Of a stretch of 64,000 nt of DNA, positions 5,204-63,678 are shown in pieces. The DNA comes from Malus domestica. Lineage: Eukaryota > Streptophyta > Magnoliopsida > Rosales > Rosaceae. Where the stretch lies: contig NC_091673.1 in assembly GCF_042453785.1 (NCBI RefSeq), positions 2,859,501 to 2,923,500 on the forward strand. The letters are read 5' to 3'. Position 1 is the first letter of the stretch. Each line of letters starts with the position of its first letter. A program made the position numbers and the translations under genes. Under the pieces are notes generated by a model. That model did no database searches. It saw only the letters and a list, made by a program, of their open reading frames with translations, and was not told the origin of the DNA.

Positions 5204-6670
5204 CTAACATTGGTTGGGGGAGAACCCGACCACGGAATTCACTAGATCGAAACCGACACGTGTCCCTTGCTGTTGGACATTCCCAATGATTGACAGCGAA
5301 GAGGGCGTGGGCGCGAACGCAAAGCAAAACGTCCCGTCCGAGTCAACCGGTATCAGGAAATTTTTGGCCGGTAACGGTAACACTTTCCCATCGGCGAAGT
5401 GAAACGACACCGTTGGAACCTCCACGCTCTTCCTCGATGACAAGTCGTAACACGCGTCGAATAACGCTGCCCCTTTCGTAACTGGCAAGTCCTTAGTGCC
5501 TTTCATGAACGCGTCGCGAAGCACGTTGTATGTGTCCGTCTGCAGTCGAGTCACCGCTGTGCCGGAGTCGATGATGATTCCGCCGTTTCCGCTCCCGTCT
5601 ATCTGGAAAGCGGACTCGGGAATCGGGAGCAATGTGCCACCGACGCTGAGTCCGGTCACACCGAGATAGTAAAACGTGTCGAGCTGAGAGTTGCGGCGTA
5701 ACGGAGCCGTAACGGCGTTGGGACGGAGCGGCGAGTTGAAATCGAGAGTCGATGCAGAGTCGGAGTCGCGGTCCACGAGGCAGTAGGAAAATGACGTGGC
5801 ATTGAGCTGGGATGGAAACGAGAGTGAGCCGCCACCGAGTCCGAGAAGCCCAGCCGCTCCGATGAACAAGCCCTCGTTGGTGTGGCCACAGCCGATGGCA
5901 ATCTCCTCCGCCGAAGCCCCGCCTATGCTGATTGTCTCCGTCACAAAGTCGCCGACAGTGTACGAGCCGTCGCCGTACGCCACCTCGTAGAGACACGTGC
6001 CGTTCCGACACTCAAACACATCGAGGGATTTGCATTGTTGGGATTCGCACGAGAGCGGCGAGAAGGAAGTCGAGGAAGCCGGCTCGAATATAGGGTCGGC
6101 TTGCTGGTAGCAATCGGCGCAGGGTGCGCACTGCACCCAGCTGATGTCGCTCCCGGTGTCAAGCACCACGTAGGCCTGACTCGGCGGTTTTCCGATCCCG
6201 ACTCGGGAGAAGTACTCGCCGCTACCCTGACTCGTCCCGGAAATAATGGGGCCCTCAAAACCATCCGCATCGAGCTGTAACCCGCTGCCGGTTTCCACGG
6301 GTTTAAGGTCCGACGTGGCAACACCTCTAACGGCCAGATCCAACCGATTGGTGAGAGATCTGACTCGGGCCGAGTCGCGCTCGAGTCGAGCCAAAGTGAG
6401 GGACTTGTAGTCGCTGTGAGAAGGCGCGTGGAGTGAAATTCGGGAGTGTAACGGTATAGAAAGCGAGCTATGGTCTTGCTGGTACAATGCCTGTGCCGTT
6501 CTACTTGTATCCTCCGCCGACAGAGCTCTTAGTGTCGTCTGAATCGAAGCGGCGACGTCGAGCACCGTCGTTTTGGAGGTCGACGGCGAGCTCCGGGAGT
6601 GGGCAACTTGGGAATGACAGTGAAAGAGGAAAGCAAAGAGAATGCAGGAGAGGAAACCCATTCCGGCCAT
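5204..6670 (-). CDS. Eukaryotic A1 aspartyl protease (ASPG1/At1g25510-like)
   Basis: Single-exon gene for a 488-residue secreted aspartic endopeptidase. Residues 1 to about 25 form a signal peptide. A propeptide-like stretch carries DYKSLTLARLERDSARV near 87-103, a phrase typical of the group. The two catalytic motifs are DTGSD (171-175) and DSGTA (368-372). The plant-specific cysteine-rich insert CAPCADCYQQ (181-190) marks the nucellin/CND41-like plant subfamily. The C-terminus SIIGNVQQQGTRV...FSPNQC is intact. Length fits the family (about 480-500). From memory it is closest to Arabidopsis At1g25510 and its paralog ASPG1 (At3g18490), which is linked to ABA and drought responses. The chosen ATG gives the signal peptide and lies about 40 bp below a TATA box. 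The gene is GC-rich compared with its surroundings. Substrate unknown. Confidence 0.95.
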   Translation of the reverse strand: MAGMGFLSCILFAFLFHCHSQVAHSRSSPSTSKTTVLDVAASIQTTLRALSAEDTSRTAQALYQQDHSSLSIPLHSRISLHAPSHSDYKSLTLARLERDSARVRSLTNRLDLAVRGVATSDLKPVETGSGLQLDADGFEGPIISGTSQGSGEYFSRVGIGKPPSQAYVVLDTGSDISWVQCAPCADCYQQADPIFEPASSTSFSPLSCESQQCKSLDVFECRNGTCLYEVAYGDGSYTVGDFVTETISIGGASAEEIAIGCGHTNEGLFIGAAGLLGLGGGSLSFPSQLNATSFSYCLVDRDSDSASTLDFNSPLRPNAVTAPLRRNSQLDTFYYLGVTGLSVGGTLLPIPESAFQIDGSGNGGIIIDSGTAVTRLQTDTYNVLRDAFMKGTKDLPVTKGAALFDACYDLSSRKSVEVPTVSFHFADGKVLPLPAKNFLIPVDSDGTFCFAFAPTPSSLSIIGNVQQQGTRVGFDLVNSVVGFSPNQC

Positions 6671-6709
6671 TGAGGTGTGTTCTGGGGAGAGAGTGGGAAT
6701 CCAATGCTG

Positions 6710-6716
6710 TTATATA
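6710..6716 (-). promoter_or_regulatory. TATA box of the aspartyl protease gene
   Basis: TATATAA on the minus strand, 40 bp upstream of the start codon at 6670. This implies a very short 5' leader of roughly 10-15 nt, or use of a slightly different start site. Confidence 0.5.
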
Positions 6717-6719
6717 AGA

Positions 6720-7385
6720 GGGAGAAAAGTGGGGATAAATTACTACGGGAATTCACGTAAAGGACATTGGAAGAAAACAAAGGCAGATTTGTGGGGTGGA
6801 GAGCGGAGGAGGAGGAGAGTTTGTGGATTGAATTTCACTATCAGGCTTTGTAATATTAATTGCAAAGGAGTTTTTGTTTAGGGTTTCACTATCTTTGCAT
6901 GTATGCTATTAGAATTGTAGTATATGTATTGGCACGAATTGTATGTAAATTTGGCATCATTTCTAATTTAACGTTTAGACCGATTTCATCACTCGAACAT
7001 TAAACGGTGCAGTTTAATTAGATTTAAGCTAAAACAAGTGAATAATTACAATATTATGTTTGTGAACATAGACTACATTTTATGTTACAGATGAAAAATG
7101 ATTTACACATACTCATTTAGACTTAATAATAGTAAACTTAAGAAAAAAATGGTTCCATAAGGAGTTCAGTTTGGTTTGGGTTCCATTATCTTTGCATGTG
7201 TGTATTTTTCTTTGGGATTTGTGATTTGCTAAAAAGATAGAGAGGAGCTTAAGGTTAAAAATCTTAATTAAATTGCACTCAAAGGATTAGGTGGTGTTTA
7301 TATTGGGACTATGGGGATATGCGTCATTGTGGTTATATATAATGCTTTCTACATCTAACTACTCTTTTTTGACCAATTTAGAGAC
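6720..7385. other. Intergenic, upstream of the protease gene
   Basis: AT-rich DNA holding the protease promoter. No gene or clear repeat seen. Confidence 0.5.
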
Positions 7386-7596: not shown

Positions 7597-7605
7597 TTTA
7601 GAGAC

Positions 7606-8810: not shown

Positions 8811-8815
8811 TTCTC

Positions 8816-10924: not shown

Positions 10925-13127
10925 ATGAGTACAGTCGTGCAGGTAATTCAATCTGTGTAATTCATCAAACCGCGTTCGTTTTTGTTTTGATCTGGATTTG
11001 TTTTAGCTTGATTATGATGATGCTTTCGTTGATTAGGGTTTCACCAAGTCACTTGCCATGACTGTGCTCTCGGAGATCGGCGACAAGACCTTCTTCGCCG
11101 CCGCGGTTAGTTTACACGATTGCAATTTTGTTTCTTTTTACCTTTTGGTTGTTTTTGAATTGTGGAAATTGGAATTACAACCTAATTACACGCGATGAAG
11201 AAAAGAGACGATTCGAAAAGAATTTCGGCATGTTAAAGTTTATGGATTCAATACTATTAAGAACATCGAGTTTCTGCTGAATTTTTTAGTATATGTATGA
11301 TTTTTCAGAGGACGTACTAAAATTTAAATGCTTTCGGTAGCAACTTATCGAGCATCATATGGTGTATATGTATGTTTTCGTATATGCATATATAAATATA
11401 CTTGTGCCCGAGTTCCCTATGCGAAGTCCCTTGGGTACGAAGCGAAACCCATGAGGGCCAGAACCACATCCGAAATCCATATTCTTGTATCTGTATACTA
11501 TTTTTTTGAGTAGTAATCTAACGGTGTGATGTTTTTGCTATAAGATCCTTGCGATGCGCCATCCTAGAAGACTTGTTTTGGCCGGTTGCCTAGGAGCTCT
11601 GATTGTAAGCATTTCCCTCCCACTTTCATATAGGTGGTGTACTCCGTTGTATAGATCTTGCATGTTTCTTGTTTGAGGTCTCACATATATCTCAAATTTT
11701 TGTTGAGTTTTAGGTGATGACTATTCTTTCTGTTCTTGTCGGCTTGGCTGCTCCAAATCTGGTAAGCACTCTGATTCTGCCACCCTGAAATTGATTTTCG
11801 TGGGGCTTGTTTTAAGATCTAAGGGAATTTACTTTCGTGATATAAGGGTTACTGGTTGTCCCACTTAGAGCATCGCTTAACGTTGACCAGTTGACATATT
11901 TATATAATGTTAGCTTAATTTGGTGATGTTTTTCTGTTCTAATATGAATACTGAATGCTGATCTTGAATTACAGCTCTCCCGGAAATGGTCCCATCACAT
12001 AACAACAGTGTTGTTCTTTGGTTTTGGACTATGGTCCTTGTGGGACGCTTTTAAAGAAGATGGGTAATGGGTTTTTTTTTTTTTTTTTTGTAATTTATTT
12101 AACCTTTTTCTATTTGTTGGGGAATTTAATTCTGGTTACCCTACAGGGGTGATGATGAGCTTGCAGAAGTTGAAGCAGAATTGGTTTGTTTCTCAATTTT
12201 TATTCCTAGCTTGCATTCAATTCAAATCCTTTCTGACTTCACCCTTTTGGTGCCATTAGGATGCTGATCTAAAGGCTAACGCAGGAGGCAGCAAACGTAC
12301 TAAGGTGCTCCTCACACACACTCTTTCTACCATGTGCAATTTTGAGCTACAGGTTTATGAACGTTTATTACTTTTCAGGATGATGATGACAAGAAGCAGA
12401 GACGCTCATTTCTCTTGCAGTTCTTCTCACCGATCTTTTTGAAGGTTTTTATCTTATATGGATTATGAAATTCAAATTTTTGCATGGCTATAACTTAACC
12501 GCATCTATCATGCTCATGCCACAGGCCTTTTCCATTACTTTTTTCGGTGAATGGGGCGACAAGAGCCAGGTGAGCATTTGGCCCATTGAATATATAATCT
12601 CATTCATTATTGCTTCAACACGATTTTGTTTTGACCTGCTACTCTTTCAGCTAGCGACCATCGGTCTGGCTGCAGATGAGAACCCATTAGGCGTGGTTCT
12701 TGGTGGAATCTTGTAAGTTTCCATCCTTTATAACCTGAACGGCTTCTGGATCTTGTAGTCACCTTGCATGCTCATTCTTCTAATTCACTTTTATCCTTTG
12801 TAGTTATTCCTTTTATTTTTATTTCTGCCCAATTTACTGATTGTGCTTCCTCTTTTTCTCAGAGGACAGGCATTATGTACGACTGCCGCTGTCCTTGGTG
12901 GAAAGAGCTTGGCATCTCAGATATCGGAGAAAATAGTAATATACGCCCTGCCTTTGTGCTTAACATAATATAGTTCTCGTTTTTATATATTGTGCCCGTT
13001 GGCTGGAGTCAAATATGTGGCATCAAAGTTGTAAGTTATAATTGCTTTGTTTCAGGTTGGTTTATCGGGTGGAGTTCTTTTCATTGTTTTCGGAATCCAA
13101 TCCTTCCTTTCGACAGTGGAGGCATGA
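10925..13127 (+). CDS. GDT1-like protein 4/5 (UPF0016/TMEM165 family)
   Basis: Twelve short GT-AG exons: 10925-10942, 11037-11105, 11545-11604, 11714-11761, 11975-12063, 12147-12183, 12260-12304, 12379-12444, 12525-12569, 12651-12712, 12863-12935, 13056-13127. They join in frame to 227 residues, matching Arabidopsis GDT1-like 4/5 (about 230). The family signature E-x-G-D-K-[TS] occurs twice, SEIGDKTF (residues 18-25) and GEWGDKSQ (152-159), each in one half of a six-helix inverted-repeat fold. A charged loop (about 96-135, rich in D, E and K) joins the halves. Family members move Mn2+ or Ca2+ against protons; the short form without a plastid leader is expected in Golgi or other endomembranes. 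The start was chosen because MSTVVQGFTKSLAMT matches the family's short N-terminus. Confidence 0.95.
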
Positions 13128-14175: not shown

Positions 14176-15954
14176 TTAGCATCCGTCACCTGCAGGTTCA
14201 ATTGAACTCAGAAGTCCATTGTGTCTCAGTTGCATGCAGTGTTCTTCAGCGTCGGCCTGAGCACATATGATCACTACCGACAAGCCATTGTGGTGTGCTT
14301 CTTGCATAATATTCACAGCATTGTCAAGGGTCATCCCCGGGATAACCTTCATCAGTACTTGCACAACATATTCCCGTTTGTTGAAGTTGTCGTTGTGCAG
14401 TATTACACGATAAGGAGGAGCTGTCTTCCTTGATTTCCTGAACAATTTTGGGCAGTCTAACGTTAACTCTCATCTAATTTTACAAAGGAGAAACCATGAA
14501 CTCAAAGGAAAACCGCAAGTACCAAATACAACCGGAACCAGGTGAATGTGAAAGGATCATAAGTTTTAATAGTTTGTCGAAATGATCAAGTTTGATGCAA
14601 CATGATACGCACAGGTACGACATTGGATAGGAGTGGTGCAAACCCATTTTGTGGCATTATGTTAAACAAAGCACTCGTATGGTGTAGCGATATAACTTTG
14701 TGTTTCCATACCTCAAATCAAACTCAGAATCACGGGCAGGAGCTGCTTTCTCTCTAACTGGCCTTTCCAATAGTCCTCCCCCTTTACCAGGTACTGCTGT
14801 TGATACAGCCACCGGAATGCTAAGATTGGTGCATGCTCCTTTACAAAGGGGGTGTCTGTCTCCTGCTCAACACGTTTTATAATAAAAACTCACCAATTGG
14901 AATCACTCGGGCATATATATGTTAAACAATAAAGAAACACCATAGAAACACACTATTCATACCAACAAATTTTTTTTTTGAGACAAAACATTTAGCAACA
15001 GAAAGCGAAAATTCAGAGGATAGCATAATCTAGATTCTAGAACCACCACAACATCTACATGTCTACGAATCTCCGGGTTCTGAAAACCCAAATCTTTAGA
15101 ATTGGCTCTCTGATTGCCCTGGTGTAGATACTAGAGATGCTGGATCTTTAGGACTGCACAAAAATCCTTGCAACCCTTTTAAGGAAACCAACATGTAGAT
15201 GGCATTAGCATAAATGCATCCGGAGGCAGTGGCAAGTAATCCAGAAGTTGCTGCTCGCATTACTCGATCTTACATTAGCGAAAATGGAAACTCCACCACT
15301 CCCAAAACAGAACGCATGGGAAACCCGCCCAAGTTTAGACACAAGTACACAAAGAACTAACTTGCATTGCACTCCCCAATCTGCCCTACCTACATCTTGC
15401 AAGATACTGGACAATTTGATATAAATTTTGTTCTAACCGAAAAAGCTTTCGATTTTCGAAAAACTTTTTTGTTTACAAAACTTTTAATTCATCAAACAAT
15501 ACAAATGTACACTTACACATACAATTCAAGCAATTACATAATCCTTCGGCAGCATCAACAGAACTATTTGGGAACCACGTATACAGCTATATAACAATAT
15601 GGGGTTTTTCTTGGCACTTCATGTTCTGTGAAAGAAGTACAGCACTCTTCCATTTACACAGGAAAAAGAGACCCATCAGAGAGAATCAATTTTCGAGGCG
15701 TATTATACATTAAATTCCATAACTTCAATAAAAAAACAACAAAATCGCTAAAAATTTACAGGAACCAAGCTTTGAATTGAAAAATCCAATAAAATCTACT
15801 CCTAATAGTAAAGATGCTGAAGAAATCAAAGATTTTGACGGAAACCCAAAATTTGAAAAGAGGGAAGGAATTGAGAAAAATGGAGTAAACCTGGTTTGGG
15901 GTTGAAGACGTGGTTCGGGGAGAGAGGGATTCTCCCACAAATCGCAGTCTCCAT
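14176..15954 (-). CDS. CLPS1: ClpS-like N-recognin, chloroplast (CLPS1)
   Basis: Three exons on the minus strand (15891-15954, 14712-14862, 14176-14437) join in frame to 158 residues, close to Arabidopsis CLPS1 (159). Exons 1-2 encode a plastid transit peptide starting METAICGRIPLSP, with the conserved FDLR before the fold. Exon 3 encodes the ClpS core with PPYRVILHNDNFNKREYVVQ and VCAQADAE-like residues (here IICAQADAEEHC). The Asn-Asp pair in HNDNF and the following helix form the pocket that binds N-degron residues. ClpS hands such substrates to the stromal ClpC-ClpP protease. The first intron is about 1 kb. A weak TATA-like TAAATAAATA lies near 16010. In Arabidopsis CLPS1 also neighbours a GDT1-like gene (At1g68650/At1g68660). 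Confidence 0.93.
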
Positions 15955-16670
15955 TAATCTTTCTTTTGTCTTGCGCTGTGCTGCTGCTGCTGCACTGCGC
16001 CGTGCGATCTTATTTATTTACTGGATTTTCTGGTTGTGTTTTTAACCGACACAACAAGAAAATGATCGATGAATTGGTGCAGCGCTGTGCTGTTTCTGGT
16101 GGGACTTTGCTGGTTTTTCCAATTCACTGAACGTCGTCGTCTAGACCCTACCAAGTACGAAATTTTTATGAGTGATTACTTAATTATCTTAAATTTATAT
16201 TCTTTTTGTCAAATTATAAATCCAATTTCTTCACCAAATAAATAAATAAATTTAATTTTAAATCAAAATTTTAAATGTGATGGGTGACCACAAGAAAAAT
16301 CACAAGCTACTGATTTGGATGTGTCTATTTATTTAATTAGAGACATGACATATAACTGTTTCCACTAAATGAGATGGACAATGCAACTACAATTTAGTCA
16401 TTAGTGTGAATTGATTTGAAATTTTTGAGACTTGAAGGTGGAATATCCAATCCGCTTTGATTATTTGAATAAAAATATTATTTAAGCCTCGCTAGTAATA
16501 ATGTAGTTTGAATTCGTTTTTAACAAGAATTGAATATATAGTCTCTCGCTCACTTATGAATTAAAGCCTCGCTAACGAGTGATAATGTACTACATTTTAT
16601 TGACTTGTTAGATTTCCCTTTTTCAAGAATAATAATACCCTAATATTGACAAAAGGCCTCATATTGGCCT
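15955..16670. other. CLPS1 promoter region and intergenic DNA
   Basis: Upstream region of CLPS1 followed by AT-rich DNA. No gene seen. Confidence 0.5.
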
Positions 16671-18681: not shown

Positions 18682-21600
18682 TTACGTGTAAAACCGATAT
18701 GTTGATGCATCAGCAATGATATTACGAAAACCACCAACTGTGGAAGCCAACATGATGAACACTCCAATGAATATGCAAGCCTGCAAACACAGTCATCATA
18801 AGACATGGATATATTGCTAACTGGTTATGTACCGATGTCGATAATCAATCGTATATATATGCCATATCGACAATAAGTAACATTAGATTCTTTGGCTTAC
18901 CCAGTTGACGAGCCATTGGATGCTGAATCTCTTTGGTTTCTTAATTCTCAGCCACATTATACAAGGAAGCTGTGGAAAAATGCTCAATTAGTTAGTTAAT
19001 TTCTTGCTGAGGATGTAGTTTTGTAATTTCTGCAATAAGAAATTAAGAAAATAAAAGTGAGAGAGGCTTACAAAGTATGAAGTGGGGGCAAAACCAAATC
19101 CACCAAAGAAACCAAGAAGGTCTCCAAAGAAAGGGAAGGTGACTCCAATAAATAATGTAAATGCTGCAACATAGATATAGTAATTAAGGACTTAATTAAT
19201 TAGGGTTTAATCAACCAGAAATGACACAGAGACGCAGACTTATGGGAAATGGTAATCTCACCAACATAAGCTGATCTCGTGATTACTCTAAGTGCAATTC
19301 CAGGTGGGAAGTTTACTTTTTTCATCATCATCCTCTCAAGCATGTCAAAAACAGGCATAGCATAAACCTGCACGTTTTTCAGTCACATCCTTAATTAGTG
19401 TAGTTCTACTAAACCCTAAGTTATTAGAAATCACTTATAGCCCTTCTAAAAGTAGTGCCAAACAGACCAGCTAGAAGTTTTTATATGGATTTATAAAAGT
19501 GATGCCGGAGAGGTTCTCTTGTGCAGTTAATTAAGATTTAGTTTTAATGGTGCAATCGTCCAACAAATGTTTACCACGTGTTAAAAATTTGCCCAATCCA
19601 TTCAATAAACGATTGACATATGGTAAGTATTAATGACATGAGAAAATGATGAGAATCTCTCGTGGTGTTGAATGCGAATGCTGACTCGGCAGTTATACCT
19701 GGTAGCTGCCAATGACATGGACGACAACCATTAGGTTAGCAGCAGCAATGAGCCATGCAGGTTTCTTAAGATCCATGAGCACGTTATCATCGACATCTTG
19801 ACCAAAAGCCCAGTACCCGATCAGGGCCACCGGGAAATAGCAAATTGCGTTGATAAAGTAGGCTCCCAGGGCACCTTTCCACATGGGAATTCTCGACGGC
19901 TTCTCGGGAGTCGATGGAATTGTGGCCTGGATTTCAAGCGTCACTGCATGCCCGGCAAATGCAAAAGAGATTTGACCTAATGCATTGAAAACCCTAAACA
20001 TGTAATCTGCAGGGCTTGTTTTCTTGTACGCGTAGCTCACGTTTTCAATCCGACCTTTGCTTAAGCAACCTGCCCAGGCTATAGTTGAATAACTGCAAAT
20101 TAACAACAAATTCAAGTTTTTTAGGTAAGTTTTTTATTTTTTTTGAAATTAGCCTTCTAAAGTTCTCTTGCTAGGTTTAAGAGTAAGTCTTCGGTAGGAC
20201 TGCCCTACATTGGTGGGCAGGACTGCCCTACATTGGTGGGCAGGACTGCCCTACTTTGGAGTTGGGTGAGATCAAATTACAACGGTCTCATGTTTTTGTG
20301 AGATATATGTTTTATGAATGACATGGTCGGACATCCCCAACCAAGTTTTTCTAGAATTTTAGAAGGGAAATATGCACAAATATTTTAGGAAAAAAAATTG
20401 TGTAAGGTCACTTTATTATCTATTTCGTGACCCTCTACTTCTAATTTTGCTTAAAAATTTGTAACCGATTCTATTTATCCATGTCTCATTTTGGGTTGAT
20501 TGCTCTAATTGATGCTCTAGAACAAAACTATACCGAACTTTGACTTGAGTTTGTGTAGGGTATGTAAAAAGGAAATTGACTTGCTCACCCCTCCTTTTTT
20601 AACCGTTAGATTGATCAAACCAAAACAATATTATCAAATATAGCCAAAAACTAACCCTTAATTTCAAAAATGTCATTTTTTATAAAATCTTTCAAATGTA
20701 TCCAAAATTCCACTTAAATAGATATAAATACCCTCAAATTTAACAATCACATAAATTAAAGGTTTTTTTAGCTAGAATGATTCGTGACATTGACATAACT
20801 TCTTAATCTGGTCTTTAACAATTAATGATAATCAATAGTAGTATTCTTGAATTTGTTATCATGAATCATTTTTGTCTTTCTTTGAATTTGTCCAATCGTG
20901 ATCATTTTAGTTTTTTTTGTGAAAAATCTATCAATTGCTCTGTTAGTGTGATGATGTGGCACCATGTGGGTTTCACAAATATAATCATATAACGACATGT
21001 GGATTAACTTTAAAAACTATTTTTTTATATTTAAAACTAAAAATGATATTAGTAAGAAAAAAGGCGTTGAAGGCATGATTGAAATTCTACTACTCCCGCT
21101 TGCGGTAAGCGCAGTGGCGCTCAATGTTGGTGATGAGGGGGTCGAAAGAGATAGGGTTGTTGTGGTGGAGTGTAGAAGCGAAGGTGAAATTGGACTGAAG
21201 CTTAAGGCAACAGTAGCTAAAAAGCCTTTAATTTATTTAATTGTTAAATTTGTGAGTATTTGTGTCTATTTAAATGAAAATTTGGATATATTTGAAATTT
21301 TTTATAAAAAGTGACATTTTTAAAATTAAGAGTTAATTTTTGGCTATATTTGATAAATACTCATTTGCTATGTCACAAAGTTCCATTCTGTTTTGGCTTT
21401 TAACAGATTTTGTTTGCCTAAAGCAAACTTAAATCAGATTTTCCTTCACATGGAAAGTGAAAAATTAGAGTGAAAATTAAAATTACTACCTTAGCGACAT
21501 GATGGCTGCTGCTAGAGAAACACCGGCAACAGAGTTGAAATTGGGGAGCTGGGAAAGAAAGAAATGAAGGGAACCAAAGATGAGAATCCAGTACGATTGC

Positions 21601-22274
21601 TTGACTGGTGTGCAATTGGCACATGCCAGCTCCACAAACTTCTTCAGACACTTTCCTCCGGTGACCATGTACACTATGTCACATCCAACCTGCACAATCA
21701 GTTGTTGCGGAAGCACAATCCACGGCCCGAGCTTTGGTCCAAAGGCATGCCGCCCGAGGTCTATATATCGGTCGAATCGAGTTCCCGGAACACATTCATG
21801 GAGCTGAATCATCTGCCACATTGTGTTCAAGGTCATGCACCATGATATTGCCAGCACCATTGTCCCTGGACCCCTGAAAGAAATAGTTGGTAAAAGAATA
21901 GGGTTTAGCGTGTAAGTATACAAAGCAGTGTATTTTCTTTTTGTCGAAACAAAGCAGTGTATTTGGTTTAGGTAAGTTGGATTGTTCTGTACCATCCTAA
22001 GTATGCCATGGCATAAGGCAGGCTGAGTACACCGGCACCGATCATGGCGGTGACGGTGTGAAAGGTGGAGTACCACCATTTGGCTCGGCGGGCGTTGTCC
22101 ACTGGCTCCTCCCTCCATTTGTCGTCCGAAACAACTTCCTGCCATAGTTTCAAGCATCGACATGAAAAAATTTAGAAAATATATTACAGTGAAGATCGCA
22201 AAAATTGGAAGACCAGATAGCTTTGTGTGAGTAAAGAGTGTGGTGATGCGCACCTTTGGAGAAGTTGTAGCCAT
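18682..22274 (-). CDS. Lysine histidine transporter-like 6 (AAAP amino-acid permease)
   Basis: Eight GT-AG exons on the minus strand (22254-22274, 21993-22138, 21490-21873, 19699-20092, 19262-19367, 19072-19163, 18901-18969, 18682-18780) join in frame to 436 residues, near the 440 of Arabidopsis At1g25530. It is a proton-coupled amino-acid importer with about 10-11 membrane helices, expected in the plasma membrane. Family phrases are all present: [97 protein letters not shown] and the end NIIADAS. The first exon is very short (MATTSPK); this ATG was chosen because it splices cleanly to [12 protein letters not shown]. Intron 3 (20093-21489) is 1.4 kb and holds an inverted-repeat transposon and a 23-bp tandem repeat. 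A TATA box lies 160 bp upstream and a MITE lies about 280 bp upstream. Substrate range is unknown for this clade. Confidence 0.94.
20196..20260. repeat. 23-bp tandem repeat, 2.8 copies
   Basis: Unit aggactgccctacattggtg plus ggc, repeated at 20196, 20219 and 20242 (the last is partial with one change). It lies in intron 3 of the permease gene. Confidence 0.9.
20590..21410. mobile_element. Long inverted-repeat DNA transposon in permease intron 3
   Basis: The stretch about 20625-20782 returns in inverted orientation at about 21217-21375 with high similarity (for example tatcaaatatagccaaaaa against tttttggctatatttgata). This gives terminal inverted repeats of roughly 150 bp around a more GC-rich middle with an unidentified 105-codon frame. 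Long TIRs suggest a Mutator-like non-autonomous element. Outer borders and target duplication were not resolved. Confidence 0.6.
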
Positions 22275-25745: not shown

Positions 25746-26568
25746 TTAACCCATAAAACCCTCTCCAGGCATATTAGGACCTTGTGACAAAACTTGTCCC
25801 CGTGGAACTAACTGCAACCGGCCTTGACATAAGCTCGGCCATCCCCGTCCCAACCAACTGTTGTTGTTGGTGCTGCTGCTGCAATTGCTGAAGTTGCGGC
25901 AGTTGCTGTTGTGATTGAAGTTGTGAGAGCTGCTGCTGTTGTTGAATCTGAGGGTGCTGCTCTTGAATCTGTGGATGTCTCCGAGGATGCTGTTGCTGCT
26001 GACCGGGTACTTGCATGTGGTGGTGTTGTTGACCGCCTACTTGAATTTGTTGCATTTGCTGCTGCTGTTGTTGACCGCCTACTTGTGGCTTAAACACAAC
26101 CATATCCTGAACCAAAGGTAGACTTTGCTTCAACAAAAACCAGGTTGTAAGAGAGTTACAATGCCGAGTCACAACCTCATTTGGAGTACCGCCACAGGCC
26201 TCGAGTTCAGAAAAAAATTTAAACAGAAGGTGCAGGGTATGCAGGGAGCCTTCAGAATTAAAAGCACCTTGTACAGGCTAGAAAGCACTTTAATCGACCC
26301 CACAAAATCTTTGAAAAATACAAGGTCCATATTGCAGGTTTCTTTTAGCACTGAAGGTACCTCACATATTTGTTGTGGATTTACGAGCTAATAGTTGGCG
26401 GCCATAAATACTTAATATTGAAAAAAAACTAATGATAAGAAATTACAATCCGCAGTAAAAGAAAGACCCAAGTCAATAACAAGCTCACCCCTGGAAACAG
26501 CATTCCAATCAAGCGGTATGCTTTGTCTGAAACGGAGAATAGTAGTGTCTGAGAGGGCAATTGGATCA
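25746..26568 (-). pseudogene. MED25 (PFT1) 3' fragment, pseudogene
   Basis: Two exons of the gene for Mediator subunit 25 survive on the minus strand. Exon 26489-26568 encodes QLPSQTLLFSVSDKA and RLIGMLFPG from the end of the activator-interacting domain. After a 382-bp GT-AG intron, exon 25746-26106 begins DMVVFKPQ and continues as the glutamine-rich tail. Frame is then lost: the longest frame stops at 25774, while the true MED25 ending (GQV, SQGPNMPG, GFMG, stop at 25746-25748) lies in another frame. No upstream exons for the von Willebrand-type domain or the middle region are found before 27.3 kb. The retained intron shows this is a DNA-level relic, not a processed copy. Its place between LHT-like 6 and HHO equals that of Arabidopsis MED25 (At1g25540). 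Confidence 0.85.
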
Positions 26569-27350
26569 CTGCACACTGAAAAAAGTGGGAAATCAGCTTT
26601 TTGAGGAGAAGAAAAATAGCAGAATAGTTCTCGGTTTCATGTGTACATTCGAAGGAAATCTACTGCAGAAGGTCAAATAAATTAGAAAAACTAGCTTTCG
26701 ATGCTGAAGTCTCACAAGGATGATACTAGAATCAAGAATTACCCCACTTCAAGCCAAGAGAGCCACTTAAATGCATAAATTTAGTTTATCACAGCACTCA
26801 GAGGTAATTCAGTTTAAACAGATAATTAACCAAGTTCATATGAGAATGTCACACAGAGTCTGAGGAAGTACTCTGCTAGATCAGAATTTACAGATAATCA
26901 AGTGGTAATCCAAGATGCTATATATATATATTTTGTACAAATATTACACATCCACAAATGATAATCAAGTGATAATCAAGTGATAATCCAAGATGCTATA
27001 TAATCAAGTGATAATCAAGTGGTAATCCACAAATGTCACACAGAGCCTTAGATCAATCGCACATCCACAAATAACACCTTACGGAGATCGAATCAGATGA
27101 TCAATTTTCAGAGAGATTGTAACCTCAAAATCATTAATACAAATATTATTTTGTACATGTGTTCTTGTCTCGTTTGTTTCAGGAATATTTCGTGTTTACA
27201 ACAACACTCGTTTATAAAAGACGAAAAACTGACGTTACTGACGAGCGTGAGAGCGATGCACTTCTAAGAGCATTTTAAATCAGAATTCAAAGTTAGTGCG
27301 TTAAGCAAGCTCGTTTGTTGCAAGGCATCTCCCACCAATTAAAGAAAAAT
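26569..27350. other. Degraded upstream part of the MED25 locus
   Basis: I searched this stretch by eye for further MED25 exons on the minus strand and saw none. It holds an 11-bp repeat cluster (26893-27030). Confidence 0.45.
26893..27030. repeat. Short tandem/dispersed repeat based on ATAATCAAGTG
   Basis: The 11-mer ataatcaagtg occurs about six times, partly in tandem, and the longer phrase taatccaagatgctatata is duplicated around an AT tract. Confidence 0.8.
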
Positions 27351-32999: not shown

Positions 33000-35141
33000 A
33001 TGATGCTGCACTTTAATGACCCGGCAAAGTTGAAGACCAAGAAGGTAGCTTTTTCTTCTTTTTTGGAGAGTTTGTATTGAGCTTTTTTTCTTTTTTATTG
33101 TATGGGGGTCGTTGAATTCTGAGGTTATTGCATACCCAGCTGCTCAAATTCTCCATCTTTTCGATTTTGTGCGTAAATCCAATTGGGTTTTCTGAAGTTT
33201 TTTTGGGTTAATTAAGATAAACTTTGGCGATTAATTCATATAAGTGCATGTGTCCAATAAATTATTCATCATTGTTGCTTGTTCTTTGTGTAGTTAATGA
33301 TTTTGATACTAATTTCCCAATTGTTGTGCTGTCAGATTGTGTTCGAGGAGGTTTACGCTGCTCGTGATTCCGCGACACTTGAGCAACTGAAAGAATTGAG
33401 CTCTAAGCGCAGAATGCTTGAGGAGTCCATCAATGAGAGCAGCTCCATCAATGGCGCCATTGCAAGAGAAATGTCCGGAGGGCTAACTTCTCGTAATCAA
33501 CAGGTAATTTTTTGGTGTGGCGCTTGGTATTTCGAAGACGCCTTAGTTTTTACTTGCAGATTAATGCCACTTTATGAAAGTTTTGACATTGGCACTATAC
33601 CCCAGTTTATAGGCAAATTCTGCCTGCATTTAGGTTCTTTAATTTCGGTATGGATGCATTTTTGTTGAATTCGTGCCATTGTTTTTAGTAATCTAATACT
33701 AGTTTAATTCCTTTCTTCAATCTGAATGTATTTCAGGTTGTGAGATAATATTATGTATTTCAGGTTGTGAGATAATATTATATGGAGAACTTTTCGTGTT
33801 TTTAGTACAAATTAATTCCTTCTGTTTGAATCTATTGAATTATGTAATCCAGTCTTTGATGGCATTTGCTGTCCTACTATGTCTCAGGTTCTTCACAACC
33901 TTGAACTGTATCTTCCCTTGTTGGAAAATTTGATTTGGCACGTTGATCGGGTCAAGAGCCACCACCAGATAGTTCGATGGACTTCAGAACTTAAGATACA
34001 ATGGACTAGTGTTCTTAGTTCATCTTCTTTCTTTAACTTGAAAGGATCGAAATATTTTCAAATCAACAACTTGCAGTTTGAGTTGTGCCTGACCCTTTTC
34101 CTCTATGGCGCAATCCTTCGGGAGAGGGCATTAGAAGTTCTTCCTGCAGGTAGGGATAGGGCACTAGTGCTCTTACTTTCATTTTTCACTTTTAAGATTT
34201 GTATTTTTTTTTTCTTTTAAGACCAAGGATGTAAGATTAACTAACTGGTTTCTTCGCATTGTCATAGACCTAGTGCAATCTGCCACGCTATTCCGAGAAG
34301 CTGCTGGTGTTTTTCATCACCTTGCTCATCAAGTTATTCCTTTTCTACAACACTCATTGGTTGGGGAAAGGCCACCAGAAGTTGTCTCATCAGTGTCTGC
34401 TGCCATGAGCCTCATTTGCTTGGCCGATGCCCAGGTCAGCCTTCCTTTCCTCGCTAGTTTTCCTTGTTTAGGTTTCGTGACAGAATTGCGGATGTTTGCT
34501 TGTTCTTTGTGATAATTTATGTTCGTTATGAAAATGTAACAGGCCGTAACAATTAAAAGGGCTGAAGAGAAGGGTACTACTGTCGGTCTTTTGGCAAAGT
34601 TGCACCATGGTATTGTAGAATTGCTTGATGAAGCTGCAGGCCTTTTGCATACGGCAAAGGAATGTAAAGACACTTCTTCGGATGTTGCGGTATGTCTATA
34701 TTTACAGTTTTATTCTACGATATATTCATCTCAATTTTTGGTGAAAAATCAACAATGCTTGAACGTGTTCACTCTTTCCGGTTTCTGCAGGACTTTTTAT
34801 CATCCTGCAAAATGCTACACGAGTTACAAGCCCAGAAATACTTTGCGGAAACCCTAAAGCGTTCCAACCAATTCGGGGTCGCTGTTGCAGTTCTTCGATT
34901 CACACTGACTAATGTGAAAAAGAACATGCCCGGCAAAGAATCGTGGAAGTCTGTTCTCAAAGAGGAAATTGACAATTTTTCCGAATTGCTCAGAAAGCAT
35001 GAACATGAAAACGAATTTGTTTGGCACGAGAAAATCCCCTCGGAGGAAATGTTGTTGCCAAAACCCGAAGGTAACAAAATCGCAAACATCATCCCTTATC
35101 AACCGAAAAAATGGGAAAGACAGCTTGCCTTCAAGATTTGA
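33000..35141 (+). CDS. Endosomal-targeting BRO1-like domain protein
   Basis: Six GT-AG exons (33000-33044, 33336-33503, 33888-34149, 34268-34434, 34543-34689, 34791-35141) join in frame to 379 residues, slightly shorter than Arabidopsis At1g73390/At1g17940/At1g13310 (about 410-420). BRO1 domains are boomerang-shaped helical folds that bind ESCRT-III proteins; the role of this plant-only short family is not established. Typical phrases are LHFNDPAKLKTKK, LEQLKELSSKRR, IVRWTSELKIQWTS, YGAILRERALEVLPA, RPPEVVSSVSAAMSLICLA, EKGTTVGLLAKLHHG, the MPG-ESW phrase and the end PYQPKKWERQLAFKI. The first of two adjacent ATGs (33000 and 33003) is given. Intron 2 carries a 27-bp duplication (33729-33782). 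The position fits At1g13310 beside HRS1. Confidence 0.92.
33729..33782. repeat. 27-bp tandem duplication in BRO1-gene intron 2
   Basis: Two adjacent copies of tatttcaggttgtgagataa plus tattatg. Confidence 0.9.
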
Positions 35142-43665: not shown

Positions 43666-45376
43666 TTAAAACGCAGGGGATGGAGGGGTGTGAGGGGAGG
43701 ATGATGTAGCGGTCGAATTGGAGTGACCGCGGCCTTCGTTGTGGCTGACCCTTTCGTCTGAATGAGAGGGTTCGGGTTGCTTTAGCCGCAGTCTTTGGAC
43801 TGGTGGTGAGACCTGTGTGACAGCAGGAGTTGAAGCCACAGGTGCATATATTCCATTATTGGCTGCCTCCCCGGAAGCAGTGGTTGCTGCCACTGCTGCG
43901 TAGTCCTGGGGTGGCACCCAAATGCCTCCCACAACCACAAATTGTGGTGCTTGTGCGGCGTTGTTGTTGCCGCGAATTGTTGGAGTCGGTCTTCTAGTGT
44001 GTAAACGATATTTCTGCAAACAACGAAAGACGATTGAAATTAGGCTCTGCAGAATCAGCTAAAAAATTCACAATTTATTGTTGATCGGACAAGACAATGC
44101 ATGCTTCTTATGTGCCTATGTTTTAAAGGACATCCACTCTTGCTTGCACATAGAGAGGCACCTATACTGATGAATTAAAACAGATAGATAATCACATATA
44201 CAAACCTGCAAATGGCTTTTGACTTCATCATTAGTAAGTCCATCAACCTTCATTAACTCTCTAATTTGTTTGGGTGTAGCAGCTGAAAGAAAAAACCAAT
44301 CACATAGCACATCAAACACACATCCAATACAATCCAATCCAACATGCATCCAACCATATTAAATAACATATCCAACTAAATTAATCCCAATTCCATACCA
44401 TGTGAACCACCAAGCTGTTGAAGAGCATTTAAGAACCGGCGGTGCAATTCCGGCGACCAGTTCCGCCTTTGTTTCCTCTGACCCAGTCCATCTTTCTCTT
44501 CTTTCTTGTTGTTTTCACCACTGCCTCCGCTCACGGTGTCCGTGGTAGAACTAGTCGCCGCAGCCGAGGAAGGTTGTTTAGCCACCGGTACACTAGTCTT
44601 CCCAATGCTTTTCTCCTTTTGGAAAGGCTGAAAAGCACCCCCATTTCTATTTACCTCCATAACCAAAGCCTTCCTAGGCAATTCCTGCAATGACCCAACA
44701 CCCCAAAAATTAATACTTTCCTACTCTTTCACCTCAAATTTTCTCGGCAACTAAACAAAAGGGCAGTCACAAAATTCACCAAAGTTGATAAAGGTAGAGT
44801 CTTTTTTGTACCTCCTTGAGTGGTGCATCTGGGGTTGTATTCCAAAGCTGTACAGATCTAAGCCAATCTGATTTTTTCTTATCACCTCCTGCAATCTTAT
44901 CATCCTTCTCATTGTCCTTAGCCTCCTGAGACTCGTGCACTTCATCGTCCTCACTATCAGAAGATGAAGTCCTTTTTAATGGAATAAATTCCTCAAAAAC
45001 ATGCCCCTCACTCGAAGTCTGCTGAGAACACTCAGATTGTCCATGCATATAATCTGCGGTTGTATCTGAAACCGGCTGCTTGCACCTCTCAATAGCTGCA
45101 AAAATACCCAGAAAAACCCAAATCAGAAAACACAAAACCAGAACAAACCCACAAAAATTCAAGCAAAAGAAACGAACTTTCCGACCTAGAACACAAAAAT
45201 TAAGCTAAAAATTGATAAGGGTCTGTGTCGTCTGCAGTACCTTGAGTGACAAGCTCGAAGCAGAGAGGGAGCTCTCTCTGAAAAACTTGAATCTTATGCC
45301 TCTCCTCCTCCAAAGCCTTGACATACTCACGGAAACCTAGCTTTGAAGAAGCCTGCATTTCCTCTGTGGACTCCAT
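43666..45376 (-). CDS. HRS1/HHO (NIGT1-type) GARP transcription repressor
   Basis: Five GT-AG exons on the minus strand (45241-45376, 44812-45095, 44399-44684, 44206-44282, 43666-44013) join in frame to 376 residues. The N-terminus has the family's hydrophobic/helical box ([25 protein letters not shown] phrase, residues 15-39, then LVTQAIE). [10 protein letters not shown] follows near 127-136. The single GARP/Myb-like DNA-binding domain spans about 211-268 ([54 protein letters not shown]), followed by [14 protein letters not shown] and a low-complexity tail. Family members act in the nucleus as nitrate-induced repressors of nitrogen- and phosphate-starvation genes. Overall sequence suits HHO2/HHO3; the neighbours (BRO1, WIP, AOC) match HRS1. 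The start was chosen at MESTEEM. Confidence 0.93.
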
Positions 45377-53995: not shown

Positions 53996-55329
53996 ATGCA
54001 AACTCCCTTCACTAGTACTACCATAGATGAAGATTTTCAGGATGAGGACTCCATTTTTCTCTCTCTTGGCCCTCCTGGACTGGATAATCATGTCCCCAAA
54101 CAGTACCACCTCATCTACCACCACCAGTCTTCTTCCTCAACTCAGCCTGATCACCACCAAACTTTTTATCATGATTATCCAAACCCTAATCCTGATCCTG
54201 AGGACGGCACTGTCACTGTAGCTCTTAACATTGGGCCACCGAGTAGTGGAGGCGGTAGGCCAAGCTCATCGTTCATCAGCAACCCTAACCACAACCACAT
54301 TGGCGGTCCTGTGGAAGGGCAGTACTGGATTCCCTCTCCTGCACAAATCCTCGTAGGCCCCACCCAGTTCTCTTGCCCTGTCTGCAGCAAAACATTCAAC
54401 AGATACAACAACATGCAGGTAGTACTCATCATCGGCATAATTAGTAACACACAAATCAATACCACTACTAGTAAGTAATTACTAATAATGGCTGTTATCT
54501 AATTTTAGCAATTGGTTTCTCTACAGAAACCATTCCTCATGATTTACAAAACTTGCATTACAGTTTGTTTATTTCTCCTCTCCTTTTCAAAATTTTCCAC
54601 TCCAAAATCACAAATTATGAGTGGAATCATAGTTATACTGCCCTAATGTACAGATTTTTAATTTTATGCAACACTTGTGTTACAATTTGTTTATTTCTTC
54701 CGTGTTTATGAAACTCTTGTCTTACAATTTGTTTATTGCCGTTTATTTCTGCTCCCAAATTGTCATCTTGCATTCAAAATCACAAAAAAAGAGTGGAATC
54801 ATCAACATCTTTTACCCTAATCTATGTATTTTGTTTAGTTTGTGTTTACCCTCTAATTATTTGTATGTAGATGCATATGTGGGGGCATGGATCAGAGTAC
54901 AGGAAGGGACCAGAATCCTTGAGAGGGACAAAGCCAGCATCCTCAGTGCTGAGACTTCCATGCTATTGCTGCGCAGAGGGGTGCAAGAACAACATAGAAC
55001 ACCCAAGGTCAAGGCCACTTAAGGACTTCCGGACACTGCAGACACATTACAAGAGAAAGCATGGGACGAAGCCGTTTGGGTGCCGCAAGTGTGGGAAACC
55101 ATTTGCAGTGAGAGGCGATTGGAGGACTCACGAGAAGAACTGCGGGAAGCTCTGGTTTTGCATTTGTGGGTCGGATTTCAAGCACAAGAGATCGCTCAAA
55201 GACCACGTTCGTGGGTTTGGTGATGGACATGCACCTTATGCTGTGGAGCTGTGTACTGAGCCTGAGGAAGAAGATCACATGGATGACGAGGATGACGATA
55301 ACAATGACGATGATTTGGTTATTAATTAG
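53996..55329 (+). CDS. WIP-type C2H2 zinc-finger transcription factor
   Basis: Two exons (53996-54418 and 54871-55329) join in frame to 293 residues. The name-giving Trp-Ile-Pro is at 111-113 ([20 protein letters not shown]), followed by four zinc fingers of the WIP domain: [21 protein letters not shown] across the splice site, [38 protein letters not shown] and [17 protein letters not shown]. The N-terminal half is His/Pro/Ser-rich with a VALNIGPP motif (usual form VALxIGLP). The tail is strongly acidic ([14 protein letters not shown]). The protein is nuclear; relatives TT1, NTT, WIP4/5 and DOT5 regulate seed coat, transmitting tract, root-tip and vein development. The finger wording resembles WIP3 (At1g08290), while the neighbours match At1g13290 (DOT5/WIP6), so the subfamily is left open. 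The intron position after NNMQ is typical of the family. Confidence 0.93.
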
Positions 55330-58765: not shown

Positions 58766-58886
58766 ATCGTTCTGTAACTTTTTTTGTGAATCTAGAAAAA
58801 AATGTAAAATATTCTGATTGAATTGTAAATGAAAAATATTCTTAAGCACACCCATGCTTATTTTTTTTACAATTCAGTTTAATAAA

Positions 58887-59733: not shown

Positions 59734-59742
59734 TTTAATAAA

Positions 59743-60025: not shown

Positions 60026-61214
60026 TCAGTTGGTAAAGTTTTTGATGGTGGCACTGGGCTCAGTGGCCTTGGCGGCTGCCGACGGCTCGACGCTGGGAGA
60101 CGGAGCGACCGGCTTCCCGGTAAGCTCAACCGGCAAATCCTTAATGCCCTTCAAATAAAACGTGTAAAACAGCTTGATGGGAAACACAATCTGCTTCACC
60201 TTGACTTGTCCGTACACTCCCTCGAAGATCCCAGATCCACCGGTCACGGCCATGTACGTGTCCTCGTAGGTCAGATAAGCTCCCTGAACTGAAATGTGGC
60301 CGTAGTCTCCGAAGTAGAAGCTGTAGATTGCCTCGTACCTGTCTCCTTTTTTCTCGGGAAAGTTTTGGATCAAAACGCACAGGCCTGCTGTGATTCCAAG
60401 ACGTTTTTCCAGGTCGCCGGAGTAGATCTTGTTGCTGAAGGGGACGAGGTCGCCGAGGGAGTTGACTTCTTTCTTGCTCAGTCTTAGGTATGCTGGGCTG
60501 CCTCTGTCTCTCTCATTGATCTCGTACACATTCAGTTCTTGAACTTTTGCTGGAAAATTTTAAACGTAATTGATCAGTTGCTACTTCTAAGATTAAGCTT
60601 TTCTACAACTCGTTCAAGAAGCACTTATGTTAATAATCACTTTTGCAAGAAGCGCTTTTATCATACAACGGCTAAATTTATTTTTTTATAAAAAATCCAA
60701 GTACTTCTTAGAAAAGAACTTGGAAATAGTTCTACAAGTCAAAAGCACTTTTGAGTTTTACTGCCGAATTAATTCAAAAACACAACTAGCACTTCCAAAA
60801 TTCCAATCAAGCTAGTACACAACGTTTATGATTATTAGACAACGCTTTTAGCCATTCGAGAAGCAGTCACAGACGGTGACTAAGTTAAGAATTGATCAAA
60901 AGCAATACATAAAGACATCACAAGTTAAAAAAAAATAAAAAACCATGATCAGAAAGTGGTAGCTGGAAAAAGTGCTTACTGGGTCGTGAAGAATCAGAGT
61001 CAGCTGGTTCCTTCTTCTTGCCGAAGAAAGCTGAGGTGGTGAAGTTTCTGGGGGTTGAAAGGGATTGCTTGGTCGATGCGGATTTAAGGGTTGGGAAGGA
61101 GCGAGAGAGACTGAAGCCCAACAGTCTTTGAGCTTGAGAAGATGGAGGAGGAGACCTGATCGAGTTGGAGAAATGGAGGGAGGAGATCGCTTCGAGAGAG
61201 CTTGCAGACGCCAT
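60026..61214 (-). CDS. AOC: Allene oxide cyclase, chloroplast
   Basis: Two exons on the minus strand (60980-61214 and 60026-60549) join in frame to 252 residues, the usual length (Arabidopsis AOC2 has 253). The enzyme turns unstable 12,13-epoxy-octadecatrienoic acid into cis-(+)-OPDA in plastids, the step that sets jasmonate stereochemistry. Exon 1 encodes a Ser-rich transit peptide (about 1-75). The core starts [18 protein letters not shown] and includes [91 protein letters not shown] and [17 protein letters not shown], all diagnostic for the barrel-shaped AOC fold. The C-terminal tail ([17 protein letters not shown]) is longer and more Ala/Pro-rich than in the part I know of Arabidopsis. 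The next gene, a methionine aminopeptidase, is also the neighbour of AOC genes in Arabidopsis. Confidence 0.97.
60600..60830. repeat. Repeat-like stretch in the AOC intron
   Basis: Several 'aagaagc(a/g)cttttat' and 'aaaagcacttttgag' phrases in both orientations, similar to the MITE family at 27352 and 57690. Too degraded for borders. Confidence 0.35.
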
Positions 61215-61350
61215 GGATGGCAGAGGAGATGGAGTCCAGTCTCTGGAAGAGAAGGTGGATCGGAAAGTAAGTGGGAAAGTACTGGCAGTGACGAGGATAA
61301 ATTAGAATATTGGTATGGTGTTGGAAAATAAATAGTGAGATGGTAGGGGA

Positions 61351-61358
61351 TTTTTATA
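61351..61358 (-). promoter_or_regulatory. TATA box of the AOC gene
   Basis: TATAAAAA on the minus strand, 137 bp above the AOC start codon, giving a leader of about 105 nt. Confidence 0.6.
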
Positions 61359-61389
61359 GTATGATGCCTTTGTTTGAATAAGTTTATCC

Positions 61390-61612
61390 AACAGCATCCT
61401 CTTGCATTTTTTGGTGAGAGTTTTGGAAATTTGTAAATTGTGTCTGTTCATTGTATATGTTGGAGTTAGTTTTTGTCAGGTATTGTTTATATTTAATTTT
61501 AAATAAAACATTTAAAATGATTTCTGATCGTAAAATGTACAATGAACATATATAATTCATAGATCCTCAGAAACCTCGGAATCCTCGCAAAAAAGATCCG
61601 GCGAGGATCCGA
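61390..61612. mobile_element. Mutator-like MITE, family A (copy 5, degraded)
   Basis: About 220 bp with the family core (tgttcattgtatatgttgg ... gtaaaatgtacaatgaaca) and a GGATC-rich right end (gatccggcgaggatcc). It lies immediately upstream of the AOC core promoter. No target duplication recognised. Confidence 0.65.
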
Positions 61613-62601
61613 ATACTGAGTTTACATATGGTGTTGAACACGAGGGCTTCTTTTTTGTGTGACGAGTGGATGACGGTGCATGGTGTCGGCGGGTGCATTA
61701 TTTGGTCGGAGAAACATATTTTGTGGCAATCCAACTAAGATTTTGTTTCCTTAAGCTTAAACCCATGACTTTTTCTGGACGGAGTCCAAGCCCCAGTCTG
61801 TTTTAACCTGTGAACACATTAACTTATGCTCACAACTTGAAGAGAACTTTTGGTTAAAAACTTTCATGTCATGTAACGGTTCTTACAGGATACACACGAA
61901 TGATACTCTTTTATGTTAGTCTTCTTAAGATAGATCTCTAACTTTTATTTGTTGCATTTGACAAAATTAAGGCCTTAACTTATCATATGATATGATCGCG
62001 ACTTATTATCCCACCTCCATTTTAAGCCATCGCAAAACCTAACTTTTAAGGCTGTACATTTGCTCACTGCCCTAAAATGGTTTAAGGAAAAGAGTAAGTA
62101 CAATTTTTTTTTTTATCGAACGAGTGATTATCCAATTGGTTTGGCAATAACAAAAGAATTACTAGCAATACCTGCTGCTCTCACTAAAGTACATATACAT
62201 AATATCGATATATCACACTCACGGCTGATGATTTTAAATCAAGCATGACATAATCAAATCTCCACTATAAATTTCAAAATTCAAATTCATCTAACAACAA
62301 TCGACGAGAGTTTTTCTTGGTTAGGGAGAAACAATTATTTACAATTGAAAAATCTCAATGTTAAATAATTATTTACAGGCATTTTGCGGTTCCATAAGCA
62401 GTTGCATACTTTGCACTTTCGCTTGGTCAAACATGAGACTCTCGAAGGTGACTGGCCGCCTGCCCTCGGCTGGGGAAAATTCATTCGTCCTAAAAACACG
62501 TGCTGAACGCTACACCACCGTGGAGACTTGGACGGTAAGCGAATGCTTGTCCACGACAAACATGGTCGGTAATTTTAGGGAAGAAAAGGAAAAGTACCAG
62601 G
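61613..62601. other. Intergenic DNA and 3' flank of the aminopeptidase gene
   Basis: No gene supported. The part from about 62340 may be 3' UTR of the aminopeptidase gene. Confidence 0.5.
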
Positions 62602-63678
62602 TTAACATGTTGTCAAAATCTCAGCACCGGTTCTAGTAATCAGAATGGTATGTTCAAACTGCGCAGCCGGGCTACCGTCCGCGGTCAGCGTCGTCCAATT
62701 GTCCGGCCACGTTTTACACTCGATGCTTCCCATTGTAAGGATGGGTTCTGCAGCAAAAGAGAAATAACATTTTGTGTGATAAGGATCATTGGTCAGAATT
62801 CTACCGTCGCATGCTCAAACTTAGGATCTTGAATATGCCGCGCCGCTTTCAGTAAAATTTATGCATGTTTTACCGTCGACTTTACAAACTTGAAGAAGAT
62901 AAAGTTGCAGGTATATTGATTTCTGAGTATGGAAAGTACTGCACTCACCAATGGTAAATGTCTGACCTTCAACCATGGAACCAGACTGGTCATTCCCTGT
63001 CAAAAAATACATGACAATTATAAGCAGTTCATGTCTCGGCGGTAAAGATAGTAACGAAGGTTTAATATCGAGTAGTGGCTTACGGTGATGTAATATTAAT
63101 GGTTCAGAATGAAATACAGTCCCTACACCGTGCCCAACAAAGCGCTCTACTACGCCATAACCATATTTTTCAGCATGTTCGCTGAAAAAGAACCAAATAA
63201 AAACTTATGAACAAGGGAAGGAATTGTGCATTGTTGTTCAATGGTGTAAAATATGCAATTCTTTCCGGTCGAGGATTGACAATTAATCATCTAAAAGATG
63301 TCCAGAATAAGTTTTAGTCCAATATATCACAAGGAGGCGAATCAAACCTAATTCTCTTTCCAATTTTCTTGAAGCTAGCACCGTCCTTGCAAACTGCTAT
63401 GCCTTTTTCCAAGCATTCTTCGGTTACCTGCCACCAAGATAGATTGGTAATGCATAAATTGGACGTCTGTAACAAAATCAAAGCTTAATAAGGAATAGAT
63501 ATGTAGTATATTCCTAAACAGATACGAAACTCGGATGGATGTGAATGATAAAACCATGCTTCTGAATAACGACAAGATGCAACACTATCAAGCAGAAAAA
63601 GTTTACCTTCAGTAGTCGTTGGATTGATTCACTGACCTCCCCACAAAGAAAGGTCTTTGATGTGTCTCCATGATATCC
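62602..63678 (-). CDS. Methionine aminopeptidase 1, organellar type (MAP1B/C/D), partial
   Basis: The last five exons of a minus-strand gene (63607-63678, 63348-63427, 63084-63181, 62949-62996, 62602-62747) join in frame and cover the C-terminal half of a type I methionine aminopeptidase. The enzyme removes N-terminal Met from new proteins. Visible phrases are GYHGDTSKTFLCGEV, CLEKGIAVCKDGA, HAEKYGYGVVERFVGHGVG (metal-site His), TVFHSEPLILHH, GSMVEGQTFTIEPIL (metal-site Glu), ECKTWPDNWTTLTADGSPAA and QFEHTILITRTGAE (metal-site Glu). MVEGQTFTIEP and DNWTT are typical of the plastid/mitochondrial MAP1B-D group. Upstream exons lie beyond the right edge; 63679-64000 looks like intron. In Arabidopsis MAP1 genes sit beside AOC genes, as here. 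Confidence 0.93.

What the first reader, a model, noticed from the sequence alone, without database searches (positions are those of the whole stretch)
5204..63678. Two Arabidopsis chromosome-1 blocks joined in one ancestral-looking gene order
The order protease, GDT1-like, CLPS1, LHT-like 6, MED25 relic, BRO1, HHO/HRS1, WIP finger, AOC, MAP1 combines (from memory) At1g25510-25520-25530-25540-25550, with CLPS1 from At1g68660, and At1g13310-13300-13290-13280-13270. The sister blocks in Arabidopsis each miss some members; here nearly all are together, with a single HHO gene at the point where the two blocks meet. This would be an unusually complete view of a segment before gene loss.
Basis: partly seen in the sequence, partly recalled or inferred. 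Interest (0 to 1): 0.75.

Follow-up and report, generated by a model that had tools for sequence, protein, structure and literature searches.

The report
Conserved gene-order block of flowering plants
This stretch of a fruit-tree-type genome keeps, in one piece, a run of neighbouring genes that thale cress seems to have divided between duplicated copies of the segment; the order is real, and it is ordinary old gene order rather than a new arrangement.

Summary
In detail: ten loci in the stated order (protease, GDT1, CLPS1, LHT-like, 3' MED25 relic, BRO1, HHO, WIP, AOC, MAP1), plus a missed lactamase-fold gene. The window is C13:2859501-2923500 of an unnamed 651-Mb genome, apple-type by inference. 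C16 carries 12 shared loci in the same order, median exon dS 0.23, so the order predates that duplication. Neither copy is complete: C13 lacks most of MED25; C16 showed no protease or BRO1 but two MED25 copies. The interpretation needs correcting: the Arabidopsis blocks are best read as overlapping sister copies of one segment, each with RAV and HHO (neighbour numbers partly recalled). That predicted a RAV gene just past MAP1; it is there on both contigs, on C13 6.3 kb beyond the window. Printed grape numbers agree: RAV g03070, AOC g03090, HHO g03110 on one scaffold. So: a retained ancestral segment seen against reciprocal gene loss, which is ordinary. Not tested: Arabidopsis, grape or peach sequence, and an HHO tree.

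The parts
   Evidence: ORF; Pfam TAXi_N/TAXi_C
11037..13124 (+). GDT1-like cation/proton antiporter gene, several exons
   Evidence: Pfam GDT1
14179..15999 (-). CLPS1-type Clp adaptor gene (upper end approximate)
   Evidence: Pfam ClpS
18685..22150 (-). LHT-like amino-acid transporter gene
   Evidence: Pfam Aa_trans
25777..26659 (-). MED25 relic: 3' exons only (limits approximate)
   Evidence: exons; middle exon absent from C13; fuller copies on C16
27504..32414 (+). copia-type LTR retroelement between the MED25 relic and BRO1 (290-base LTR pair, 97.6% identical)
   Evidence: Pfam; LTR pair
33333..35138 (+). BRO1-like domain gene, the only copy found in the genome
   Evidence: Pfam BRO1; whole-genome search
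43669..45295 (-). HHO/HRS1 (NIGT1) GARP transcription factor gene
   Evidence: Pfam Myb_DNA-binding
53996..55326 (+). WIP-type C2H2 zinc-finger gene
   Evidence: Pfam
60029..61301 (-). allene oxide cyclase gene
   Evidence: Pfam; matches solved Arabidopsis AOC2
62611..63681 (-). MAP1-type methionine aminopeptidase gene, possibly running past the window
   Evidence: Pfam M24 below cut-off

Best explanation
The window is one of two homeologous copies (C13 and C16) of an ancestral rosid segment with the order PAN-type bZIP - choline transporter - protease - GDT1 - CLPS1 - LHT - MED25 - BRO1 - HHO - WIP - AOC - MAP1 - RAV. In the Arabidopsis lineage this segment was duplicated (most likely the beta and alpha events) and then thinned: the At1g25/At1g68 pair kept mainly the left genes, the At1g13/At3g25 pair mainly the right genes, and RAV and HHO stayed in all four. 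The apparent joining of two blocks here is simply the less thinned state. Shown here: gene content, C13/C16 collinearity, RAV at the predicted place, paralog divergence. From papers: grape gene numbers and some Arabidopsis identities. Inferred or recalled: the remaining Arabidopsis numbers, which Arabidopsis duplication it was, and the tribe of the plant.
For: Ten loci in order. C16 holds the same order at 3100525-3235885. The RAV prediction was met on both contigs (AP2 and B3 domains). Exon dS C13/C16: median 0.23 over all 18 rows printed, range 0.08-0.78. Grape scaffold VIT_01s0011: RAV g03070, AOC g03090, HHO g03110, STN7 g03010 with At1g68830, NPF3.1 g03400 with At1g68570. At1g25510 to At1g25560 are six consecutive genes with MED25 at At1g25540. 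The four NIGT1 loci are At1g25550, At1g68670, At3g25790 and At1g13300. A RAV gene and an AOC gene also lie about 30 kb apart on C9, so at least the right end is old.
Against: No Arabidopsis, grape or peach sequence was at hand. Several AGI assignments (MAP1, WIP, BRO1, CLPS1, PAN, transporter, GDT1, LHT) are recalled; the search meant to check the At1g13/At3g25 ones found no paper with three or more of six. Protease and BRO1 were found on C13 and not on C16, so the full 13-gene order rests on C13 plus the C16 MED25. The lactamase-fold gene between BRO1 and HHO is, by recall, not part of the Arabidopsis blocks. Grape positions of the left genes (protease to BRO1) were not seen in print. One short GDT1 exon row has dS 0.78.
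Confidence: 0.83

Rival explanations
1. The two Arabidopsis segment pairs are copies from the older eudicot triplication (gamma), and the C13/C16 segment is one gamma copy that happened to keep nearly everything.
For: Older paralogs exist in this genome: AOC on C12 and C9 with dS 1.35-1.62 or saturated, RAV on C9 and C17 at 56-59% identity, HHO-like genes on C2 and C15.
Against: A published tree puts one grape HHO closest to HRS1, HHO2 and HHO3 together (passages). The grape scaffold mixes AOC with At1g68-type genes.
Confidence: 0.13
2. The two blocks were separate in the rosid ancestor and were joined by a rearrangement in the lineage of this plant, before its own genome duplication.
For: Both homeologs share the arrangement, so such a join would have to predate their split; that alone does not exclude it.
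Against: Grape has RAV, AOC and HHO within five gene numbers on one scaffold that also holds At1g68-type genes. HHO and RAV numbers occur in all four Arabidopsis regions (that they sit among the other block genes is partly recalled).
Confidence: 0.04

Closest known systems
Reciprocal gene loss (fractionation) after the alpha and beta duplications of Arabidopsis, seen through an outgroup without them
   Same: One outgroup segment interleaves genes divided between paralogous Arabidopsis segments, with shared anchors (RAV, HHO).
   Different: The outgroup here is itself duplicated later (C13/C16) and shows its own complementary losses.
Syntenic chromosome pair 13/16 of apple
   Same: [quoted passage not shown] this genome shows the same pair of contig numbers with low dS.
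   Different: The contigs here are unnamed, so the plant is placed by inference only.
Reconstructed ancestral rosid gene order (PMC5322550, search listing only)
   Same: By its abstract it orders protogenes from grape, Arabidopsis, apple and others; this block is the kind of unit it would contain.
   Different: Whether this very block is listed there was not checked.

Membership tests
Homeologous segment from the duplication of this plant's tribe | A second contig with the same genes in the same order | tested here: met
   12 of 12 loci found on both C13 and C16 are in the same order, taking the first LHT/MED25 copy on C16; protease and BRO1 gave no match on the 140 kb of C16
Homeologous segment from the duplication of this plant's tribe | Low and fairly uniform synonymous divergence | tested here: met
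   Median dS 0.23 over 18 exon rows, both C16 LHT copies included, rows under 30 codons dropped by the script; 17 of 18 rows are 0.08-0.39, one short GDT1 row is 0.78
Reciprocally fractionated Arabidopsis segment (beta/alpha) | Shared anchor genes in all copies | tested here: inconclusive
   HHO numbers for four regions and AP2/EREBP numbers At1g13260, At3g25730, At1g25560, At1g68840 (only At1g68840 named RAV2/TEM2 there) seen in papers; the other three as RAV genes, and the neighbours, are recalled
Reciprocally fractionated Arabidopsis segment (beta/alpha) | Outgroup segment that holds both gene sets together with HHO and RAV | tested here: met
   Both sets on C13; RAV past MAP1 on C13 and C16 as predicted; transporter and PAN-type genes on the left
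Reciprocally fractionated Arabidopsis segment (beta/alpha) | Gene trees placing the outgroup copy outside both Arabidopsis pairs | not testable with these tools
   No Arabidopsis HHO or RAV sequence at hand; published tree known from text only
Pre-gamma linkage | A diverged paralogous segment with genes of both halves | tested here: inconclusive
   C9 has RAV and AOC about 30 kb apart, both right-half genes. Searches with protease, GDT1+CLPS1, BRO1 and MED25 listed nothing near there, but searches are DNA searches and one search scored only 40 of 4484 candidates; LHT was not searched (one search failed)

The most novel reading that the evidence does not exclude
The linkage is kept by selection: a jasmonate synthesis gene (AOC), the jasmonate coactivator gene MED25 and the nutrient repressor HHO have stayed neighbours since before the rosid radiation because they share regulatory sequence.
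Probability: 0.04. Interest if true: 0.5.

Novelty: new member of a known kind. Interest (0 to 1): 0.2.

Why it matters
It is a clear worked example of how one ancestral segment can be divided by complementary gene loss in Arabidopsis, and a warning that 'neighbouring block' language can hide paralogy: the Arabidopsis pieces overlap rather than abut. It also shows loss still going on in this genome: full-type MED25 was found on one homeolog only, BRO1 and the protease on the other only.

Tried and rejected
Joining by rearrangement was considered and set aside because both homeologs and the printed grape numbers share the arrangement. The HHO-like neighbourhood on C2 (18 kb) was tested for other block genes: only HHO matched; the AOC neighbourhood on C12 (10 kb) gave AOC only. 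The CLPS1-region matches on C6, C17 and C2 and HHO fragments on C16:15.9 Mb, C4, C14, C5 and C1 look like stray copies and were not followed. The PDB search with a MED25 exon gave nothing significant (4 matches, best E 0.18). Literature searches that could have shown the block described; I saw no such description in their listings or in the passages I opened, which is no proof of absence. Left wondering: the copia element may or may not have caused the MED25 truncation.

I lowered confidence in the best explanation from 0.85 to 0.83 (and raised the rivals by 0.01 each) because fewer Arabidopsis labels are checked than I had written.
Full report
What was checked. Open frames and exon chains show ten loci in the order given: aspartyl protease (-), GDT1 (+), CLPS1 (-), LHT-like (-), MED25 relic (-), BRO1 (+), HHO (-), WIP finger (+), AOC (-), MAP1 (-). 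Pfam supports 8 of the 10 above cut-off; MAP1 falls one bit short, and the MED25 relic is recognised by exon letters (motif recalled) and by its match to a C16 gene with a Med25_VWA domain. A copia element with a 290-base LTR pair at 97.6% identity sits between the MED25 relic and BRO1.

The homeolog. Blastn of the window against 140 kb of C16 (rows of 90 bases or more printed) and tblastn of gene pieces show GDT1, CLPS1, LHT, MED25, the lactamase-fold gene (only), HHO, WIP, AOC and MAP1 in the same order between C16:3125315 and 3223824. Off-diagonal matches are mostly dispersed repeats, apart from the second LHT/MED25 copy. No protease or BRO1 match was found on that stretch. BRO1 was found only on C13 in the whole genome (five matches, all C13). 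Nei-Gojobori dS between C13 and C16 exons has median 0.23 over all 18 rows printed, range 0.08-0.78 (rows under 30 codons were dropped by the script, and both C16 LHT copies are counted). Apple chromosomes 13 and 16 are reported to hold syntenic regions (PMC9720448, passages), so contig numbers and dS suggest an apple-type plant; this is inference.

MED25. On C16 the LHT-MED25 part is present twice, about 38-40 kb apart; of 11 non-self pieces over 250 bases, 9 are 92-97% identical and 2 are 84-87%. The MED25 middle exon hits both C16 copies and decayed pieces on C7 and C8, not C13. Upstream exons of the first C16 copy carry Med25_VWA; I did not establish that either C16 copy is intact. On C13 the match to C16 stops at 26931 and resumes at 35716; the copia element and BRO1 lie in between.

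Arabidopsis reading. Recalled locus numbers place At1g13260 RAV1, 13270 MAP1C, 13280 AOC4, 13290 WIP6, 13300 HRS1 and 13310 BRO1 in one run, with At3g25730 to At3g25790 as its sister; and At1g25500 to At1g25560 in another, with At1g68640 to At1g68840 as its sister. From papers seen as passages: the four NIGT1 genes are At1g25550, At1g68670, At3g25790 and At1g13300 (PMC7660924); At1g25510 to At1g25560 are six consecutive genes with MED25 at At1g25540 (PMC4560864); At1g13260, At3g25730, At1g25560 and At1g68840 are listed as AP2/EREBP genes, At1g68840 as RAV2/TEM2 (PMC3485569). If RAV and HHO are in all four segments, the segments are copies of one interval, and a RAV gene should follow MAP1 in this genome. 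A scan of C16 for it found a 512-residue frame at 3234350-3235885 with AP2 and B3 domains. Its best match elsewhere is C13:2929795-2931240, 83% identical, 6.3 kb past the window end. On the left side, choline-transporter exons lie at C13:2850780-2852288 and C16:3107119-3108274, and a DOG1-domain gene (PAN-type by recall) at C13:2837144-2837792 and C16:3100525-3101196.

Grape from printed gene numbers. On scaffold VIT_01s0011: g03010 STN7, paired with At1g68830 (PMC9003472); g03070 VvRAV1 at chr1:2,751,566 (PMC6794750); g03090 AOC (PMC11362058; PMC7449092); g03110 HHO, named AQUILO, closest to HRS1, HHO2 and HHO3 (PMC5888914), paired with At1g25550 (PMC11480701); g03330 IST1 protein (PMC10643163); g03400 NPF3.1, paired with At1g68570; g03430 NIMIN-2; g03520 Constans-like 16; g03730 MYB62, paired with At1g68320. 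PMC13121152 names numbers without functions. So grape interleaves an At1g13-type gene (AOC) with At1g25/At1g68-type genes. I saw 15 papers, all as passages only; 27 papers hold a gene number of this stem, of which I opened 10. Grape left-half genes (protease to BRO1) were not seen.

Older paralogs. AOC on C12 and C9 differ from the window copy by dS 1.35-1.62, one short C9 row saturated. C9 also has a RAV gene about 30 kb from its AOC. HHO-like genes on C2 and C15 are much more diverged, with no other block gene in the 18 kb of C2 examined. These are consistent with gamma-age copies. No left-half partner was listed beside the C9 pair, but not every left-half gene was searched and the DNA searches were capped.

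Verdict. The gene order is real and ancestral-looking. It is the expected state of a rosid segment without the Arabidopsis duplications, and the Arabidopsis pieces are best read as overlapping copies rather than joined neighbours. Interest is low.

Noticed in passing
   Followed up: partly
window 16673-16938 and 48721-49329: Dispersed repeats that match the same part of C16, about 3230837-3231650; the first holds a 5S rRNA-like hit at 16751-16866, 38.8 bits against a cut-off of 38. By recall this resembles 5S-bearing Cassandra elements.
   Followed up: no
C16:3132210-3189431 (loci L023-L028): Segmental duplication of LHT and MED25 with part of the CLPS1 region, about 38-40 kb apart; exon 3 of the second LHT copy is split between two frames, so it may be broken.
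   Followed up: partly
C16:15924215, C4:8367529, C14:12911398, C5:35629024, C1:28838088 and C1:28757740: Short HHO-like fragments at 68-78% identity, some with stops; they look like dispersed pseudogene pieces.
   Followed up: no
window 1-2668: Remains of a copia-type element on the - strand: a gag-like frame just under the Pfam cut-off and an integrase-like frame recognised by eye.
   Followed up: no
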